NCBI GenBank assembly: GCA_022563885.1
Contig: JADFMM010000027.1
Location: 1-35,679, forward strand
Direction of reading: 5' to 3'
DNA from: Planctomycetota bacterium
Lineage (GTDB): Bacteria > Planctomycetota > Phycisphaerae > Sedimentisphaerales > Anaerobacaceae
Length of the DNA: 35,679 nucleotides
A program made the translations under genes and the position numbers. Each line of letters opens with the position of its first letter. Within the stretch, counting starts at the first letter, position 1. The notes beneath the pieces were generated by a model. That model had not been told where the DNA came from and did not search any database. It worked only from the letters and a program-made list of their open reading frames with translations. This document shows positions 5,592-13,449 of the stretch, in pieces.

Positions 5592-5834
5592 ATGGAGATA
5601 CGCGTCAACGATGAAAAAGTAACTTTCACCCAGGAGTCTGTGAATGTGTTGGAATTGCTGGAGTTTCAGGAGGTCGACATGCCGGATATGGTGTCTGTGA
5701 GCATCAATGGCGACGTGCTGAAGCGCGAGACATTTGAAACGACTCTCATCAAGGAGGGAGATGCTGTCGAGTTTGTCTACTTCATGGGCGGAGGGTGTCC
5801 AGGGCGATCGCCTCTCAGTGCCGTGTTCGGATGA
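5592..5834 (+). CDS. thiS: ThiS/MoaD-family sulfur carrier protein with a 12-residue C-terminal extension
   Basis: 80 residues, ATG preceded by GGAG at a good spacing. The ubiquitin-like beta-grasp pattern is clear: MEIRVNDEKV, a middle VSINGDVLKRE, and EGDAVEFVYFMGGG at residues 56-68. In ThiS the protein ends at the Gly-Gly, whose carboxylate is adenylated and thiocarboxylated to donate sulfur for thiazole synthesis. Here 12 further residues (CPGRSPLSAVFG) follow. Either the precursor is trimmed by a protease, as known for some carriers such as QbsE, or a stop codon was lost: TGT at 5796-5798 is one base from TGA. No thiF, thiG or other thiamine gene is adjacent, and MITE-A copy 2 lies immediately upstream. 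The family assignment is firm; function in thiamine synthesis is inferred. Confidence 0.85.
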   Translation: MEIRVNDEKVTFTQESVNVLELLEFQEVDMPDMVSVSINGDVLKRETFETTLIKEGDAVEFVYFMGGGCPGRSPLSAVFG

Positions 5835-6043
5835 GTTGCGACATGAAATGCCAATGTAAATCGGCAATCGGTTTGGGCCAGGGCCTGATTAGTTGATCAC
5901 TGATGGCTGATTACTTTCTTGCCCGACTCCGGGGGATGTCTATTTCCGGAAAAATATCTCTTGCACCCTGCCCCCGGATGGTCTATGTTTGACCCAACGA
6001 GGTGGGTATGGTCCCCCTCAGAGTCATCAGGAAAGGAGGTCGG

Positions 6044-6133
6044 ATGAACGAGTGCTTGTCTGTATGTACCCCGTGTGAAGCCCCGCAATCTGCAGGCTCT
6101 CTGCGCCGTGGGTTTCGAAGCAAATCTCATTGA
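6044..6133 (+). CDS. Possible 29-residue peptide with a CxxxCxxC cluster
   Basis: An ATG at 6044 follows AAAGGAGGT (6032-6040), the strongest Shine-Dalgarno match in the area, at a slightly short spacing of about four bases. The frame encodes MNECLSVCTPCEAPQSAGS and ends RSKSH before TGA at 6131. Three Cys fall in C-x3-C-x2-C. It ends 31 bases before the secreted-protein gene at 6165, so it could be a leader peptide or a separate small protein. No family is recognised and chance cannot be excluded. Confidence 0.35.
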   Translation: MNECLSVCTPCEAPQSAGSLRRGFRSKSH

Positions 6134-6164
6134 ACCTAAGTCGTAACGAAAAGGAGTTCGAACG

Positions 6165-6614
6165 ATGTTCAAGCAAACGAAATATGTATGGCTCCTGCTG
6201 CTATTGCCTGCGTGGGCCCAGGCAGTAGTGTCCCTGCCCACCAATGGGCTGGGAGAGGCTGCCGGGATTCCCAGTGCAGGAACGCTCCTGCCCGGTGACC
6301 CCTTTGGCACTCAAGATCAAGATGGGGGTGTTCAAACCGTTTCCATGACGACGATCACCATCACTAAGAATGGCGAAACCACCGTGTACCGCTCGGAAGA
6401 GAGTGAGGGCTCATCCGTGGGAGTCGGCGCGTTGCTGCCGGGTCTTGGCCTATCAGCATCTCTGGGCCCGATTCGGGGACCTCTCATGCCTTTTCGCGGC
6501 ATCGGTGTGGTGAGCCTGGGCGGACTGTCGTCGCCGGGCATTAGCAACTTGTCGATCGGATTCCTTCCGGTGGTGGGTCGGTCCCCCTTTGGGCCCCGGT
6601 CACTCTTTCCCTAG
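6165..6614 (+). CDS. Secreted Gly/Ser/Pro/Leu-rich protein, unknown function
   Basis: 149 residues; ATG preceded by AAAAGGAG at eight bases. A classical signal peptide is visible: MFKQTKYVWLLLLLPAWAQA with likely cleavage after AQA. The mature part is of low complexity. It has a central TTITITKNGETTVYRSEE strand-like segment, reminiscent of the short repeats in proteins that read TVTVTRNGKT, then a GLGLSASLGPIRGPLMPF stretch and further Gly/Leu/Pro-rich sequence to the end. No Cys, no catalytic motif and no anchor are seen. It is followed by a strong rho-independent terminator at 6689, so it is the last gene of its transcript. I do not recognise a family; a structural or surface role is only a guess. 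Confidence 0.72.
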   Translation: MFKQTKYVWLLLLLPAWAQAVVSLPTNGLGEAAGIPSAGTLLPGDPFGTQDQDGGVQTVSMTTITITKNGETTVYRSEESEGSSVGVGALLPGLGLSASLGPIRGPLMPFRGIGVVSLGGLSSPGISNLSIGFLPVVGRSPFGPRSLFP

Positions 6615-6688
6615 GGGAGGCCCCAAGGCCGTTCCGGCCGGTGGCCGCGCGGGAGGAAGGATGGAACCGACACACATTGGGGGAAAAG

Positions 6689-6730
6689 CAATGCATGGAC
6701 CGTTTGGGGTGCATGCGTTGTTTTTGTTTT
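6689..6730 (+). terminator. Rho-independent terminator after the secreted-protein gene
   Basis: Stem CAATGCATG / CATGCGTTG (one G-T pair) with a 14-base loop, followed directly by TTTTTGTTTT. It lies 75 bases after the stop of the secreted-protein gene and in the correct orientation. Confidence 0.78.
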
Positions 6731-6732
6731 AC

Positions 6733-6788
6733 GGATCGGCAAGAAATGACTTGGACCCCAAATTGTCCAAGTTATTCCTTGCCGATCC
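6733..6788. repeat. Long near-perfect inverted repeat (24-base arms)
   Basis: The arm GGATCGGCAAGAAATGACTT plus GGAC is mirrored by GTCCAAGTTATTCCTTGCCG plus ATCC, with two mismatches and an eight-base CCCAAATT spacer. No T-run follows on either strand, so it is not a simple terminator, though it starts two bases after the T-run of one. It may be a mobile hairpin, a protein-binding site or an RNA processing element. Confidence 0.8.
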
Positions 6789-6871
6789 CTCAGTTGTGCT
6801 CATGTCGGCTGGGCAGCTCCTGCCTGTCCTCGGGTCATTTCGCATTTCCGCCTAGCGTTTTCGCAGAGTAA

Positions 6872-7327
6872 ATGCCCGCCCGGTTTGCTACATTGTTGTT
6901 CATTAATCGTATAAATAGTTATACTAACAATAATAGTAGTCTAATACTCAAGTTCAAAGAGCGCGTTCGGAACCTTCAGACCAGAATCATCGAGAAACCT
7001 GAAAAACTGACTTCTGACCGTGTGTTTTATAACTACTTTTCAATACAACAGTAAGATACATGTTGATTTAACCTGTGTCCGTTTTTTCGGGCCATTCGGC
7101 GCGAATGAGGCCCGGAGGTACAGTTCTTGCCGGTGGTGCTTTGAAGGTGACTGGACCTTGAGGCAACAGAGGACTTTTGGATGGACACAGGAAGCAGCAT
7201 CAAACATCGACAAGGCACCGAAGGTCCGGCTTTTTAACCTTCGTTCCCAGGCGATGCGGTCCTTATCATATCACCTGGTTCTCTTTCTTCCTCTGCTTCT
7301 TTTGGTTGGTTCGGGGTCGCGCCCCTG
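6872..7327. other. AT-rich gene-free segment upstream of the decayed nitrate operon
   Basis: 6880-7075 is markedly richer in A+T than its surroundings (for example TATAAATAGTTATACTAACA at about 6910). The rest, to 7327, has normal composition. I find no supported gene. The short frames across it lack ribosome sites and family features. It probably held the promoter and start of the nitrate operon, now eroded, or is foreign DNA. Confidence 0.5.
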
Positions 7328-7567
7328 ATGGCGGTGATCCGTGACGAACTTAGCCTTGCCAGGGCTCAAGTCGGCAACTTCCACCATCGCAGCCGCTGGT
7401 ACGCCGTCGAGAACAGCTGTCCGCACAAGGGGCAGCAGGTGCTCTCGCAGGGCTTGACCGGCGAGGATCGGGGGAGGGCCCAAGATTGCCTGTCCCCTGC
7501 ACAAGAACAGTTTTTCCTTGAGAACGGGAAACCACTGGGGCGGAAACAAGGAGTGGCAGTTGATTAA
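7328..7567 (+). pseudogene. NirD-like Rieske [2Fe-2S] protein remnant (nitrite reductase small subunit type)
   Basis: The ATG frame gives MAVIRDELSLAR, then WYAVENSCPHKGQQVLSQG, the first Rieske box (C-P-H) in NirD form. The second box, CPLHKNSFS, appears only in the +1 frame at 7491-7517 (TGT CCC CTG CAC), and the sequence then returns to the first frame for FLENGKPLG. Two compensating shifts therefore garble about 13 codons containing the second Cys and His, so no cluster could form in the product. NirD normally partners NirB in NAD(P)H-dependent nitrite reduction to ammonium. Here it stands alone in front of the DmsC and NasA remnants, all degraded, which supports real decay. The N-terminal extent is uncertain. 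GGGGAGGG at 7470-7477 is one probable slip site. Confidence 0.75.
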
Positions 7568-7569
7568 AT

Positions 7570-8631
7570 ATGCCCTCGCCGGAGATCACCGTTCCCACGA
7601 CCAAAATCACGTTGCCCGACGGGATGACGCCGGAGGATTTCCATAAGGTGGTGGATCGTGACTTCGTCAGGCCTCAAGAACCGCACGTGCCGCTCATTCT
7701 CTATGACGGTGTTTAGTCAGTTGGGTTTCGGCGGCTTTGTGGTGGTTTTTGTGTTGGATCTCGTTCTGACGTTGTCCGCGTCGGCCGCGGCGATGGGTCA
7801 AGCCTTGGGATGGGTGGCGCCCGCCCTGATGGTCGTTGTCGGCCTATCACTTAATATCGCTCTCTTTCACTTAGGCCGCCCGGCCTTTGCCTTGCGATCG
7901 CTGCGCAACATCAAGAACTCGTGGCTCTCGCGGGAGATCGTCGGTCTTGGCCTCTTTGCGCCGGCCGCGACAGGTTACTCCCTCGTTTTGTTCCTGACGG
8001 AGGGCGTGTCTTGGATCGCATTGGAGCGGCTGGGCGGCCCTTTTTTTCGTATCGTGTTGGGAGTCGCCATGACGCAGTTTGGCATTGCCGGCGTCTACAG
8101 TAGCTCGATGTTGTACAGGGTGCCGGCAAGGCGCGCCTGGGACGGCGTCAAGACGACTATTGACTTCTTCGATGTAGCCCTCATGCTCGGTCTGGCCTTC
8201 TATGGTGTCGCCGCCTCAAGCGCGCTGCTGCTGGGCGTGACGGAAGAACACTACCTGAGGTCTTCATCCAGCCTCTGTGCCGCGGCCAGCCTGGTGGCCT
8301 TTTCGGTAAAGAACCTCAAGAATTCCTACTTTCTGCGGAAGTGGATGGGGAGCGATGTGTTCGAATTGTCGGCGAGTGCGGAATTGTGGACGAATACCTT
8401 CGGCCGACTGCGGATGATCAAGAACGTGCTGGGGGTTCTGGCGTCGCTTATGTTGTTCCGGCTGTTGAAGGGCTGGAAACCGCCACGGGCATGCTTGTCA
8501 CCTCTGTCGATGTACGGCTGCTGCTCTTGTCGGTAAGCCTGATCAACCGCTACATCTTTTTCGTCACGGTGGTGCCGAAGAATATCCCCGGCAACTTTCT
8601 GATGAGTGCCTATGAAGAGCAGTCATTCTGA
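7570..8631 (+). pseudogene. DmsC-family membrane anchor of a molybdoenzyme, frameshifted
   Basis: The main frame (7703-8460) encodes a DmsC-type polytopic anchor: MTVFSQLGFGGFVVVFVLDL, HLGRPAFALRSLRNIKNSWL, and YSSSMLYRVPARRAW, with about eight hydrophobic helices. The upstream frame from ATG 7570 (TLPDGMTPEDFHKVV to PHVPLIL) is the linker that precedes such anchors in fused ferredoxin-DmsC proteins, but it is one base out of phase at about 7700. The C-terminus RYIFFVTVVPKNIPGNF lies in the third frame, shifted near the GGGGG at 8441. The four-cluster ferredoxin part usually found upstream is absent. Intact relatives bind quinol and hand electrons to a NasA/Dms-type catalytic subunit. The gene lies between the NirD-like and NasA-like remnants. 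Confidence 0.8.
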
Positions 8632-8658
8632 GCGAGTATTGTAGAGGATTTTTCGCCA

Positions 8659-10228
8659 ATGATTCAGTCGGTAAAAGACATCCCGCGTTTCGGCATCAAG
8701 GAGGACCAGTACGCCTATGGTGTGGACGCCATCCATGGCTACATGTCCCAGGGGAAGATCCCCGACCATTGGATCAAAACGACCTGTGGTTACTGCTCGG
8801 TGGGCTGCGGCATGGATGTCGGCGTGAAGGACGATCGGATCGTAGGGGGGTCGGGGCGACCGGGATCACCCGGTCAATCAAGGCCGTTCTGTCCCAAGGG
8901 TCTCTGTGAACACGTTCCGATGACCAGTCCCCTGCGGGCCAAGGAACCGTTGGCCGAGGACTCACGAGGCCATCTAATACCGCTATCCTGAGAAGAGGCC
9001 TTCAAGCGTTTTGCGGATCGAGTGACAGCGATCCAGGCGGAGCATGGCAAGGAGAGCTTCGCCGTACTCTCGACCGGCCAACTCGTCACCGAAGAGTTTT
9101 ATGCCTTGGGCAAACTCGTGCAACTGGGATTTGGCACACCCCATTACGACGGAAACACGACCCTCTGCATGAGTTCCGCCGTGGTGGGATACAAGCAGAG
9201 CTTTGGATCGGACGGCCCGCCCGGATCCTATCGGGGTCTGGCCAAGGCCGACGTCATCTTCCTGATCGGCGCCAACATCGCGGACAACCATCCCATACTC
9301 TGGCATCATATCAATGAAAACCCGAGCAAGCAGACCATCGTCTGCGATCCGCGCAAATCGAAGACGGCGATGTTTTCCGATCTCTACCTGCCGATTCGGC
9401 CGCGACGGGACATCGGCCTCTTGAACGGCTTGATCCACCTGGTCATCGCCAATGGACACACGGACGATGCCTTTATTCGGGATCACAGGGGTGCTACACC
9501 AACTCCGAGCGTCGCGTGAGCGGTGTGCGTGCGGCCGTGTCACCACCCGGTCAAGCCAAGCCCGACTTTGACATCTTCATGGCCTGGCCCAGCACCTCGG
9601 GTGCCGCGGGGCGTTGTTTCCCGGGTGGGCAGGCCCTGGGGACAGTTTTGCCGAGATGCAACGTGTCTCGAAGGGCAGACTCTGCGACTACAGTGGCATC
9701 CGTAGCGAGCAGCTCGGTCGCGTCGGCGTCCAGTGGCCCTGCAACGAGTCCCGGCCCGAGGGGACGGACAGTCTCTATGAGGACGGCGTCTTTCAGACGC
9801 CCAGCGGCAGGGCACGCCTCCTGTTTACGGAGCGACGCGAACTAGAAGAAGAGACCAGTGGCAGCTTTCGCCCGATCCTGAATACGGACCGCATCGTTGA
9901 GTATTGGCACACGGGGACGAAGACGACCCAGGTGCCGATCATCGACAAGCTGGGCCCCTGTGCGTGGGTCGAGATCAACCCGCAGAGGGCCAAGTACTTT
10001 GGTATTCGGCCGAAAGACAAGGTTACGCTGATCTCGGCGCGGGGACGCAATGATGATCTGCTGGTCTGCATCACCGAGACCACCGCGCCGGAGCAGGTCT
10101 TCATGCCCTTCCACTTTGCCGAGCAGTGTACCAATCTCCTGACCCTGCCGGTATTCGATCCCAAGTCGGGTCAGCCCAATTACAAGCAGTGTGCCGTGCG
10201 GATCCAGGTGATGCCGAAGGCGCATTAG
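8659..10228 (+). pseudogene. NasA/NarB-type assimilatory nitrate reductase (molybdopterin oxidoreductase), degraded
   Basis: N-terminus: TTCGYCSVGCGMDVG supplies CxxCxxxC for the 4Fe-4S cluster and CPKGL the fourth Cys. Between them, a shifted stretch reads RGDRDHPVNQG only in the +1 frame, starting at the GGGGGG of 8845. An in-frame TGA at 8989 replaces the Trp of the conserved LSWEEAF. After LYLPIRP (about 9400) the frame runs to FIRDHRG and then jumps to GCYTNSERRVS, losing roughly 130-150 codons of the molybdopterin region. A further shift near 9582 leads to SKGRLCDYSGIR and the C-terminal cofactor domain, intact to 10228 (EYWHTGTKTTQVP, QPNYKQCAVRIQV). Relatives reduce nitrate to nitrite in the cytoplasm. 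No functional enzyme is possible. Confidence 0.88.
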
Positions 10229-10311
10229 TGGCTAGTGGGTGGGGGCTCGGGTGCGTAGCCGGACCGCAGCGACTCCAATTGGGCGACCACTCGCCACTCA
10301 CCACTATCCAC
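10226..10311. repeat. Degenerate short-unit repeat in the gap after the nitrate operon
   Basis: AGTGGCTAGTGGGTG at 10226 is echoed in inverse form by CCACTCGCCACTCACCACTA at 10287 (units of about 7 bases, CCACTNN). The arms can fold back on each other. Nothing else is visible in the 240 bases between the NasA remnant and the AAA ATPase gene. Confidence 0.5.
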
Positions 10312-10468
10312 AATCCGCAATAATCTCCATTCCTGCCCTTGCCTGCTGTCGCAACTTGGATACAATCTTCTGCTGCCGGAAGGAGCCTCCTGCAGCGAAC
10401 ACCTTGGCCGTCTGCGGTAGGATTGTCGGTGCCAGGTCAAAGTGGTTCGTGAAAGGCAGTCAGAGAGC

Positions 10469-11839
10469 ATGTTTGAACAAGAGGATACGTTGGTAGCCCT
10501 GGGCGAAGCGCTGCAACTTTCACCGGACAACGCCATCCTGCGAAACCAATTGGCGCGTCTCTATCTGGGACGAGGACGGTTGCAGGACGCCGAGAGCCTT
10601 CTTCGGGACGGGCTGGAGAAGACACCCCGCAGTGAAGCGTTGCAGACAACGCTGGCCGAGTGCTATCGTCGGCTGGGGAACAGCTCTGCCGCACTGGTCA
10701 TCGTCGAGGAACTGATAAAGCGTCCCGGTTGTGCGCCGGGCCTGTTCATTCAGTATGCCCGCCTGCTGTTGCTCAAGGGCCAGCTGCCGGAGGCGGCCAA
10801 CGCCTACCACCGCGGCGTCGATCTGAAGGCCGACCTTGGTGATCCCGAATTGGCGGAGGCCCTGGGTGTTGAGACGGTTGAGCCGGATGGGCTACCCTTC
10901 GATGATGCCGATGTCGACGAGGAGGGACGTGTTCGTTTGGCGGCGGAGGACTTCGAGGAAGAGGGCTGGGTGCGGGAGATGGAAAAGCCCGACCTTGGCT
11001 TTGAAGACGTCGGGGGGATGGAGGACCTCAAGAAGCAGATTCGCCTCAAGCTCATCGAACCCATCAAGAATCCTGAGATCTACCGGGCCTACGGCAAACC
11101 CATCGGGGGCAGCCTGCTCATGTATGGACCGCCCGGTTGTGGCAAGACCCACCTGGGCCGGGCGACGGCCGGGGAGATCGAGGCCAGCTTTTTCTCGGTG
11201 GGCATCCACGAGGTGTTGGACATGTATATAGGCATGAGCGAGCAACGGCTGCATGCCTGGTTCGAAAATGCCCGAGCGCATGTCCCCTGCGTCTTGTTCT
11301 TTGACGAAGTCGATGCCCTGGGTGCCAGCAGGGCGCACATGAAGACCAGCGGCGGCCGTCACCTGATCAACCAATTCTTGTCCGAGCTGGATGGCATTGA
11401 CAGTGTCAATGACGGCATTCTCATTCTGGCCGCGACCAACGCGCCTTGGCACCTGGACCCCGCCTTCCGGAGGCCGGGTCGTTTCGACCGCCTGCTCTTT
11501 GTTCCTCCACCCGATAGGGTAGCGCGATCCGCGATCTTACGGGTTCTGATGCGGAACAAGCCCCAGGAGGACATCGACTGTGATGCTGTGGCGAAGAAAG
11601 CGGCGGAGTTCTCCGGCGCCGATCTGAAGGCGGTGGTGGATCAAGCCGTGGAGGGTAAGTTGGAAGAGGCCCTGGATAAAGGGAGCCTTCAGCCACTGAG
11701 GACCAAGGATTTGCTCCGCGCCCTCAAACAGGTCAAGGCGAGTACGACCCAGTGGTTTGCATCGGCCCGAAATTACGCCCTCTATGCGAACGAGGGCGGA
11801 AGCTACGACGACATTCTTGACTACCTCCAGAAGAAGTAG
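10469..11839 (+). CDS. TPR-AAA ATPase (classic AAA clade, p97/FtsH-like fold)
   Basis: 456 residues from the ATG at 10469; a start nine codons earlier is also open. The first 130 residues form about three TPR-like helical repeats (AILRNQLARLYLGRGRLQDA; ALQTTLAECYRRLGNSSAAL; FIQYARLLLLKGQLPEAANA). An acidic linker (FDDADVDEE) follows. The AAA module starts at FEDVGGMEDLKKQI: Walker A GPPGCGKT 220-227, a canonical aromatic pore loop MYIGMSE at 252-258, Walker B VLFFDEVD 275-282, sensor-1 ATNAP, arginine-finger region RRPGRFDRL at 334-342, and sensor-2 SGADLK. All catalytic residues are present, so it should form an ATP-driven hexamer that threads or remodels protein, with the TPRs selecting clients. 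The stop is eight bases before a TPR-membrane protein gene, so the two are surely cotranscribed. Clients unknown. Confidence 0.9.
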   Translation: MFEQEDTLVALGEALQLSPDNAILRNQLARLYLGRGRLQDAESLLRDGLEKTPRSEALQTTLAECYRRLGNSSAALVIVEELIKRPGCAPGLFIQYARLLLLKGQLPEAANAYHRGVDLKADLGDPELAEALGVETVEPDGLPFDDADVDEEGRVRLAAEDFEEEGWVREMEKPDLGFEDVGGMEDLKKQIRLKLIEPIKNPEIYRAYGKPIGGSLLMYGPPGCGKTHLGRATAGEIEASFFSVGIHEVLDMYIGMSEQRLHAWFENARAHVPCVLFFDEVDALGASRAHMKTSGGRHLINQFLSELDGIDSVNDGILILAATNAPWHLDPAFRRPGRFDRLLFVPPPDRVARSAILRVLMRNKPQEDIDCDAVAKKAAEFSGADLKAVVDQAVEGKLEEALDKGSLQPLRTKDLLRALKQVKASTTQWFASARNYALYANEGGSYDDILDYLQKK

Positions 11840-11847
11840 GCCTGGCG

Positions 11848-13098
11848 ATGATCCAAAGAGCCCAGTTACTCATGCAGCAATCACGCTACGACCTTGCGGA
11901 GCAAGAGCTGCGGCGACTGCTGGGCGACCATCCGGAGGCGGCCCCTGCTCATGCCATGCTGGCTCACAGCCTGATGTTGCAACAAAAAGGCAAGGAGGCC
12001 GAGGACTGTGCCTTGAGAGCCGTCCAGTTGGGACCCGAGGAATCCTACTGCCACTTCACCTTGGCTCTGGTCAAGGCCCAAAACGAGGACCTGCAGCAGG
12101 CCCGTCAGGCGGTTGAGGAGGCCATCCGGCTGGACCCTGAAGTAACGGATTATTTCGGCCTGCGGGCCTCCATCTTTCTGGCCGCCCAGCACTGGCAGGA
12201 GGCCCTGGACAGCGCCGATGAGGGCCTCGCCCATGACCCCGCCCATCAGGGATGCCTGAACAATCGCGCCACGGCCTTGGTGAAGCTCAACCGCCACGAG
12301 GAAGCCCATCAAACCATCGCTGATGCACTGCGAGAAGATCCCGAGGATGAAAGTACCCATGCGAACCTCGGCTGGACCTATCTCCACAAGGGAAAGCATC
12401 GAGAGGCCTTGGAGCACTTCAGCGAAGCGCTGCGCCTCGATCCCAATCTCTCCTGGGCGCATCAGGGCTTGGTGGAGGCCCTGAAGGCCCGGTACCTGGT
12501 CTATCGGTGGGTCCTACGGTTCTTCCTCTGGATGAGTACCCTCTCCCCCCGGGCCAGAATTGGCCTGGTCGTCGGAACCTACCTGACCGTCAGAGTCATG
12601 AACGCGGCGGCAGGGGAGTATCCCCAAATCGCTCCCTACGTCTTGCCTGTGATTATCGCGTATACGCTGTTTGTGCTGCTGACCTGGATTGCGACGCCCC
12701 TGTTCAACCTGTTGCTGCTCTCCAATCACTATGGTAGGCACGCCCTCTCGCAGACCCAGAGGGCACAGAGTTATCTCTTTGGCGCGATGTTGCTGGGGGC
12801 CCTCTGCTGCGCGGCGGTCGGTGCGCTCGGTCATAACTCGGCGGCCTACGTCTTGGCGTTTCACATGCTCCTGCTGGTCATCCCCAGTGCCGGCATCTTT
12901 TGTGGCGATGAGGCCCGTATCTATTGGCGGGGCTTCTCCCTGGTGCTAGGGATGGCCATGGTCGCCGCTGTGGCAACCGGTGCAATGGCTATCGAGGTCA
13001 GAGAGGTGGTGACGATCTGCACCATTGTCAATCTGTTGGCCCTCGTTCTCTACACCTGGCTTGGTGCGCTATTGGGGCTGCGGATCCAGAAGGTGTAG
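11848..13098 (+). CDS. TPR-polytopic membrane protein, partner of the TPR-AAA ATPase
   Basis: 416 residues. Residues 1-215 carry about five to six TPR units with the usual spacing (YDLAEQELRRLLGDHPEAAP; KEAEDCALRAVQLGPEESYC; LQQARQAVEEAIRLDPEVTD; EALDSADEGLAHDPAHQGCL; EEAHQTIADALREDPEDEST; REALEHFSEALRLDPNLSWA). From about 222 on there are six or seven hydrophobic helices (VLRFFLWMSTL; GLVVGTYLTVRV; VLPVIIAYTLFVLLTWIATP; YLFGAMLLGALCCAAVGALG; VLAFHMLLLVIPSAGIF; a TGAMAI helix; LLALVLYTWLGALLGL). The TPR part should face the cytoplasm since there is no signal peptide. Starting eight bases after the AAA gene, it probably serves as a membrane receptor or anchor for that ATPase through TPR-TPR or TPR-client contacts; this is inference. 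No family name is known to me for the membrane part. Confidence 0.85.
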   Translation: MIQRAQLLMQQSRYDLAEQELRRLLGDHPEAAPAHAMLAHSLMLQQKGKEAEDCALRAVQLGPEESYCHFTLALVKAQNEDLQQARQAVEEAIRLDPEVTDYFGLRASIFLAAQHWQEALDSADEGLAHDPAHQGCLNNRATALVKLNRHEEAHQTIADALREDPEDESTHANLGWTYLHKGKHREALEHFSEALRLDPNLSWAHQGLVEALKARYLVYRWVLRFFLWMSTLSPRARIGLVVGTYLTVRVMNAAAGEYPQIAPYVLPVIIAYTLFVLLTWIATPLFNLLLLSNHYGRHALSQTQRAQSYLFGAMLLGALCCAAVGALGHNSAAYVLAFHMLLLVIPSAGIFCGDEARIYWRGFSLVLGMAMVAAVATGAMAIEVREVVTICTIVNLLALVLYTWLGALLGLRIQKV

Positions 13099-13125
13099 AG
13101 CGGTCAAACCCAGACGCGAGCGGGC

Positions 13126-13449
13126 TTATTTTTTAGTCTTTCCCATCTTGCCACTCTGCCATTCCTTCAGGTTCTTCGCCAGAATCTGCACGTCCTCTTT
13201 GGCCGTGATGTGTTCGATGATGGCGGGGGGAACTTTGAGATTGACCATGGCCTTATAGGCCCGATCCCAGAGCCGGTCCCGTTTTTTGTCCGTTTCCGCC
13301 AGGAACAATTCACTGACCAGCTCGGCCAACTTGCCGAGCATGATCGAGTCCATGTTCCGGTAATAGCCGGAAATGATTGACTTTTGGTGCTTGCTATACT
13401 CTTGTGTTGCCACTGAGGGGGTTGTCTCCAAAGGATCCATGCCGATCAT
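13126..13449 (-). CDS. Conserved-looking small cytoplasmic protein, unknown function
   Basis: 107 residues, charged and predicted mostly helical: YSKHQKSIISGYYRNMDSIM, LGKLAELVSELFLAETDKKR and DRLWDRAYKAMVNLKVPPAI, ending in a Lys-rich tail (GKMGKTKK). No Cys, signal or membrane segment. A strong AAGGAGG lies about 18 bases upstream of the first ATG (13447), too far for normal use, so the start is uncertain; the Met three codons later is even further. The gene converges with the TPR-membrane protein (27-base gap). The codon pattern and amino-acid balance look like a true gene, but I recognise no family. Confidence 0.7.
   Translation of the reverse strand: MIGMDPLETTPSVATQEYSKHQKSIISGYYRNMDSIMLGKLAELVSELFLAETDKKRDRLWDRAYKAMVNLKVPPAIIEHITAKEDVQILAKNLKEWQSGKMGKTKK

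What the first reader, a model, noticed from the sequence alone, without database searches (positions are those of the whole stretch)
10469..13098. Two-gene TPR-AAA ATPase / TPR-membrane protein module
The ATPase has a complete p97-like motor (Walker A/B, aromatic pore loop, arginine finger) behind an N-terminal TPR domain, and the immediately following gene joins a six-unit TPR domain to six or seven membrane helices. Shared TPR domains in both partners and an eight-base gap suggest a membrane-docked unfoldase or insertion/extraction machine. I know no described bacterial system with this pairing, so it is the best candidate for a new system in the window.
Basis: partly seen in the sequence, partly recalled or inferred. 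Interest (0 to 1): 0.6.

Follow-up and report, generated by a model that had tools for sequence, protein, structure and literature searches.

The report
AAA motor with membrane TPR partner
Two neighbouring genes encode an ATP-driven protein-pulling ring and a membrane protein that probably docks it; the pair stays together in distant bacteria, which suggests a little-studied machine that pulls apart or extracts proteins at the bacterial membrane.

Summary
An intact TPR–AAA ATPase gene (10469–11839) is followed after 8 bases by a gene for six TPRs plus six membrane helices (11848–13098). The pairing is not local chance: in all 61 loci with readable context (54 from the window's phylum, 7 from Actinomycetota plasmids) the AAA gene has a TPR–membrane gene beside it, often overlapping by 4 bases. 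Flanking genes are not conserved, so the pair is a self-contained module. The motor is the most conserved part, the membrane domain the most variable, and the partner is often duplicated or split. A sibling genome lacks a clean 7.3-kb block containing the pair. Best explanation: a membrane-docked, non-proteolytic AAA segregase, working like Msp1, Pex1/6–Pex15 or Vps4. Binding, ATPase activity and clients are undemonstrated. By the features tested it is not a Vps4, FtsH, CDC48, EccA or IetAS. The pairing is not wholly undescribed: one sentence in a 2024 comparative-genomics paper (PMC11237479) notes bacterial 'VPS4-like' ATPases next to a TPR+6TM protein; I found no name or experiment. Links to defence or to PspA/ESCRT-III found no support here.

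The parts
10469..11839 (+). TPR-AAA ATPase gene, 456 aa
   Evidence: ORF and translation; Pfam AAA and TPR; start supported by alignment of 31 homologues
10490..10834 (+). N-terminal TPR domain of the ATPase (residues 8-122, about three repeats)
   Evidence: Pfam TPR_19 and TPR_15; conserved motif SPDNxPLR in homologues
11126..11149 (+). Walker A, GPPGCGKT
   Evidence: sequence; invariant in 32 homologues
11222..11233 (+). Aromatic pore loop 1, MYIG (Y or W in homologues)
   Evidence: sequence and alignment
11297..11314 (+). Walker B, FFDEVD
   Evidence: sequence and alignment
11468..11488 (+). Arginine-finger region, RRPGRFD
   Evidence: sequence and alignment
11675..11836 (+). Family-specific C-terminal tail, consensus STxEWFATARNYALYANQGGxYDDILxYL
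   Evidence: alignment; its profile finds 60 of 392 genomes of the phylum and no relative in the PDB
11848..13098 (+). TPR-membrane partner gene, 416 aa
   Evidence: ORF and translation; alignment of 39 homologues
11851..12438 (+). Six-repeat TPR domain of the partner (residues 2-197)
   Evidence: Pfam; AlphaFold2 helices; TPR structures match residues 1-217
12496..12537 (+). Juxtamembrane helix of the partner (residues 217-230)
   Evidence: AlphaFold2; conserved ALKARNxxYRxxLRYFLWM
12547..13092 (+). Six membrane helices of the partner (residues 234-415); conserved W280, G296, R297 in and after helix 2
   Evidence: AlphaFold2; alignment; no recurring Pfam family
5795..13131 (.). 7.3-kb block holding the pair that is absent from a sibling genome of the same genus
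   Evidence: blastn of the window against G001 (locus L142: 8214 joins to 8235)

Best explanation
The pair is a two-component, membrane-docked AAA segregase. The ATPase forms a hexamer in the cytoplasm (inferred from its family) and threads client polypeptides through aromatic pore loops (inferred from invariant motor residues). The partner holds the ring at the membrane: its six TPRs face the cytoplasm and bind the TPR domain of the ATPase or the client, while the membrane helices dock it and may help to present membrane clients. Neither protein contains a protease domain, so the likely output is disassembly or extraction of membrane or membrane-associated proteins, not degradation. Shown here: intact motor, predicted topology, near-obligate gene linkage and co-inheritance. 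Inferred: the physical complex, the direction of pulling and the clients.
For: Motor residues invariant or nearly so in 32 homologues. TPR-membrane neighbour in 61 of 61 readable loci in two phyla, commonly with 4-base overlaps. Distances of the two proteins correlate (r 0.61, Mantel p 0.001), as much as domains within either protein (0.56 and 0.45). Motor slow, TPRs faster, membrane domain fastest (mean distances 0.40, about 1.0, 1.6) and partners duplicated beside a single ATPase, as expected of one motor with diversifying adaptors. Predicted six helices with the TPRs on the cytoplasmic side (and basic loops in the sequence). No peptidase domain in either protein.
Against: No interaction, ATPase activity or client has been shown. 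Correlated distances may reflect shared descent alone. The same anatomy would fit an assembly factor or a polymer-recycling ATPase. Patchy presence means the function is dispensable in most of the phylum (60 of 392 genomes).
Confidence: 0.55

Rival explanations
1. A Vps4-like membrane-remodelling machine: the ATPase recycles a membrane-bound polymer (ESCRT-III/PspA type, or the TPR-membrane protein itself), as suggested in passing in PMC11237479.
For: That paper calls bacterial ATPases beside a TPR+6TM protein VPS4-like. TPRs are an alpha-helical N-terminal domain in the place where Vps4 has MIT.
Against: No MIT or Vps4_C domain in the Pfam scan; CdvC model scores 153 bits, cut-off 650, below CDC48, PAN and FtsH models. 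PspA_IM30 is found in 16 of 64 genomes with the pair and 80 of 328 without, and not in the window's genome (counted).
Confidence: 0.15
2. An assembly or insertion factor: the ATPase remodels or loads a particular membrane complex or secretion substrate, as MoxR-type or EccA-type ATPases do, and the partner is the membrane scaffold.
For: TPR-AAA layout resembles EccA; partners are duplicated and diverse, as for substrate-specific scaffolds; in two loci of one family the pair follows an Mla-type ABC transporter operon.
Against: EccA model scores 19.7 bits against a cut-off of 466.65. No conserved neighbour that could be the client complex in 90 flanking proteins.
Confidence: 0.15
3. A mobile anti-phage or conflict system in which the ATPase senses or remodels and the membrane protein is the effector.
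For: Patchy distribution (60 of 392 genomes; absent from 40 relatives), gain or loss as a block, and presence on large Streptomyces and Actinomyces plasmids. Weak IetA matches to the AAA domain.
Against: IetA scores 111 bits against a cut-off of 510. Flanking proteins are mostly metabolic and transport families with only scattered, generic hits in a defence library. The ATPase is about 50-57% identical to the window's across the phylum, slow for an arms race, and synteny is kept within some families and genera.
Confidence: 0.1

Closest known systems
Bacterial 'VPS4-like AAA + TPR/6TM protein' gene pair noted in PMC11237479 (example ACB74714.1)
   Same: Classical AAA ATPase gene next to a gene for a TPR protein with six membrane helices; very probably the same family.
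   Different: The paper gives one sentence and no name or experiment. Its VPS4 label is not borne out by domain content here (no MIT, no Vps4_C). The example could not be compared by sequence.
Msp1/ATAD1 membrane-protein extraction ATPase (PMC9273213)
   Same: Single classical AAA ring with aromatic pore loop, acting at a membrane without a protease (proposed by analogy).
   Different: Msp1 carries its own membrane anchor (own knowledge); here the membrane part is a separate TPR protein.
Pex1/Pex6 with the membrane adaptor Pex15/PEX26
   Same: Soluble AAA motor recruited by a membrane-anchored helical adaptor (own knowledge).
   Different: Two double-AAA proteins and a tail-anchored adaptor there; one single-AAA protein and a six-helix membrane protein here.
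CDC48/p97
   Same: Closest AAA domain by sequence among solved structures, p97 D2, 182 bits.
   Different: One AAA domain instead of two; TPRs instead of the CDC48 N domain.
EccA of type VII secretion
   Same: TPR domain followed by an ATPase domain.
   Different: Different AAA clade; 19.7 bits against a cut-off of 466.65; no type VII genes noticed nearby.

Membership tests
Bacterial AAA + TPR/6TM pair of PMC11237479 | Classical AAA ATPase adjacent to a gene for a protein with TPRs and six membrane helices | tested here: met
   paper text
Bacterial AAA + TPR/6TM pair of PMC11237479 | Sequence homology to the paper's example ACB74714.1 | not testable with these tools
   The record is in none of the collections that could be opened, and the one scan of named genomes was already used.
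Vps4/CdvC | N-terminal MIT domain | tested here: not met
   Pfam finds TPRs there and no MIT
Vps4/CdvC | Vps4 C-terminal oligomerisation domain (Vps4_C) | tested here: not met
   No Vps4_C in the Pfam scan; the tail is family-specific
Vps4/CdvC | AAA domain inside the Vps4 (meiotic) clade | tested here: inconclusive
   CdvC model 153 bits, below FtsH 205, PAN 197 and CDC48 195; no rooted tree of AAA clades was built
FtsH | Zinc metalloprotease domain on the same chain | tested here: not met
   Pfam finds no peptidase domain; FtsH model 205 bits, cut-off 600
CDC48/p97 | Two AAA domains on one chain | tested here: not met
   One AAA domain; CDC48 model 195 bits, cut-off 802.65
Proteasomal ATPase (PAN/Mpa) | Curated family score | tested here: not met
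   PAN 197 bits, cut-off 500; pup_AAA 121 bits, cut-off 504.75
EccA (type VII secretion) | Curated family score | tested here: not met
   19.7 bits, cut-off 466.65
IetAS defence system | IetA ATPase by curated score | tested here: not met
   IetA 111 bits, cut-off 510
Msp1/ATAD1-like membrane extraction | Extraction of membrane proteins by the ATPase | not testable with these tools
   Needs an experiment

The most novel reading that the evidence does not exclude
A widespread, self-contained bacterial membrane-protein segregase in which a soluble p97-type ring is recruited by a diversifying family of TPR-membrane adaptors: a bacterial counterpart of Msp1 or Pex1/6-Pex15 that works beside the protease FtsH.
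Probability: 0.35. Interest if true: 0.75.

Novelty: new variant of a known kind. Interest (0 to 1): 0.5.

Why it matters
In bacteria FtsH is the familiar ATPase that removes proteins from the membrane, and it degrades them (own knowledge). A protease-free AAA ring tied to its own membrane adaptor family would be a second route, testable in culturable Streptomyces or in culturable members of the window's phylum. The linkage found here turns a one-sentence remark in the literature into a defined two-gene module with predicted roles for each part.

Tried and rejected
The single scan of named bacterial genomes with the ATPase found only a distant AAA fragment and is uninformative; the Actinomycetota relatives came from plasmid records instead. 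Eight paper searches looked for the pairing; only PMC11237479 was found to mention it. The ESCRT survey PMC10936438 does not describe it in the passages found. Defence: not favoured, since neighbours show only scattered defence-library hits. PspA/ESCRT-III link: co-occurrence is the same with and without the pair. The fold search of the whole partner was filled by TPR proteins. The membrane domain alone gave no Foldseek match at E<=0.001, and its best VIA Z (9.9, rmsd 3.6 over 115 residues) is in the range of common helical arrangements; this does not show a new fold. The tail profile matched no solved structure. The best phage hits cover at most 71% of the query and look like other AAA proteins. 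A read-through fusion of a neighbouring pair was considered as a stand-in for a complex model and dropped, since no inter-domain error is reported. The search centre could not be moved to another phylum, so spread beyond this phylum rests on plasmid records.

Full report
What is there. The first encodes 456 aa: about three TPRs (residues 8–122), an acidic linker, one AAA domain (Pfam PF00004, 125 bits) and a C-terminal tail. The second encodes 416 aa, with six TPRs and a hydrophobic C-terminal half. The 8-base gap is correct. The ATG at 10469 is the better start, since the homologues align from there. AlphaFold2 on an alignment of 39 homologues gives the second protein pLDDT 91.5, with helix pairs for six TPRs, a juxtamembrane helix (217–230) and six membrane helices. 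Basic residues in the loops (my reading of the sequence) put the TPRs and the C-terminus in the cytoplasm, on the ATPase's side.

Motor. Walker A, Walker B, pore loop and arginine fingers are invariant or nearly so in 32 homologues. By phmmer the AAA domain is closest to p97/CDC48 D2 among solved structures (182 bits for that domain). The tail STxEWFATARNYALYANQGGxYDDILxYL is specific to the family: its profile finds 60 of 392 genomes of the phylum and no relative in the PDB. The window's genome has only one other match to the ATPase at E<=1e-15, at 39% identity over the AAA domain in a 690-aa frame, probably FtsH.

Linkage. The partner's membrane domain finds 49 of 392 genomes. Wherever the contig reaches far enough, the ATPase gene is next to it on the same strand. 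The converse test counts ATPase loci: 62 in all, 55 in the phylum including the window and 7 on Actinomycetota plasmids. Of these, 59 had a called TPR–membrane neighbour. Two of the other three have one on reading the frames, and the third sits at a contig end. Overlaps of 4 bases are common. The plasmid pairs come from Nonomuraea, Streptomyces and Actinomyces oris; where annotated they read 'ATP-binding protein' or 'AAA family ATPase' and 'tetratricopeptide repeat protein' or 'hypothetical protein'.

Variants. Most loci have the order ATPase then partner. A second group has the partner upstream, often split into a TPR protein with about two membrane helices and a separate protein with three or four; on the ATPase tree most of these form one cluster. 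Several loci carry two to four partner copies beside one ATPase. The motor evolves slowly and the membrane domain fast, and distance matrices of the two proteins correlate at r=0.61, comparable to domains within one protein. One motor with diversifying adaptors is the simplest reading.

Spread. Neighbouring genes are not conserved beyond close relatives. A sibling genome with 89–97% DNA identity around the site lacks window 5795–13131 cleanly, and none of 40 relatives has the membrane domain. The ATPase tree groups the window with loci of two other families, one of the same class. Gain as a block in this lineage is more parsimonious than many losses, but loss in the sibling is not excluded.

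How it may work. With an intact aromatic pore, no protease domain and a near-obligate membrane partner, a membrane-docked segregase is the best explanation (0.55). Which surface binds what, and the clients, are inference. The Vps4-like, assembly-factor and defence rivals are weighed in their own sections. The PspA test gave 16 of 64 genomes with the pair against 80 of 328 without (counted), and 90 neighbouring proteins showed only scattered defence-library hits.

What is known. [quoted passage not shown] This is very probably the same pair, though the example could not be compared. The VPS4 label was not borne out by domain content here, and clade placement was not tested with a rooted tree. 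So the finding is real, the claim of a wholly undescribed pairing is too strong, and the function remains open.

Noticed in passing
window 7703-10228: Remnants of a molybdopterin oxidoreductase operon: a DmsC-like anchor (7703-8533) and broken pieces of a molybdopterin oxidoreductase (9022-9516, 9614-10225), inside the same block that the sibling genome lacks.
   Followed up: partly
window 13129-13413 (minus strand): A 95-aa ORF without a Pfam family is conserved in four genomes of the same genus and family (62-91% identity) and marks the right edge of the block.
   Followed up: no
L053 3645-6574 and L063 11466-14458: In two genomes of one family the pair lies directly downstream of three genes including an ABC ATPase and MlaD-type proteins, a possible link to lipid transport.
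   Followed up: no
L082 8546-12870: On a Streptomyces plasmid the pair lies near a very long trypsin-like peptidase protein.
   Followed up: no
L142 2405-5160: The sibling genome has about 2.7 kb here that the window lacks, so the region has seen more than one gain or loss.
   Followed up: no
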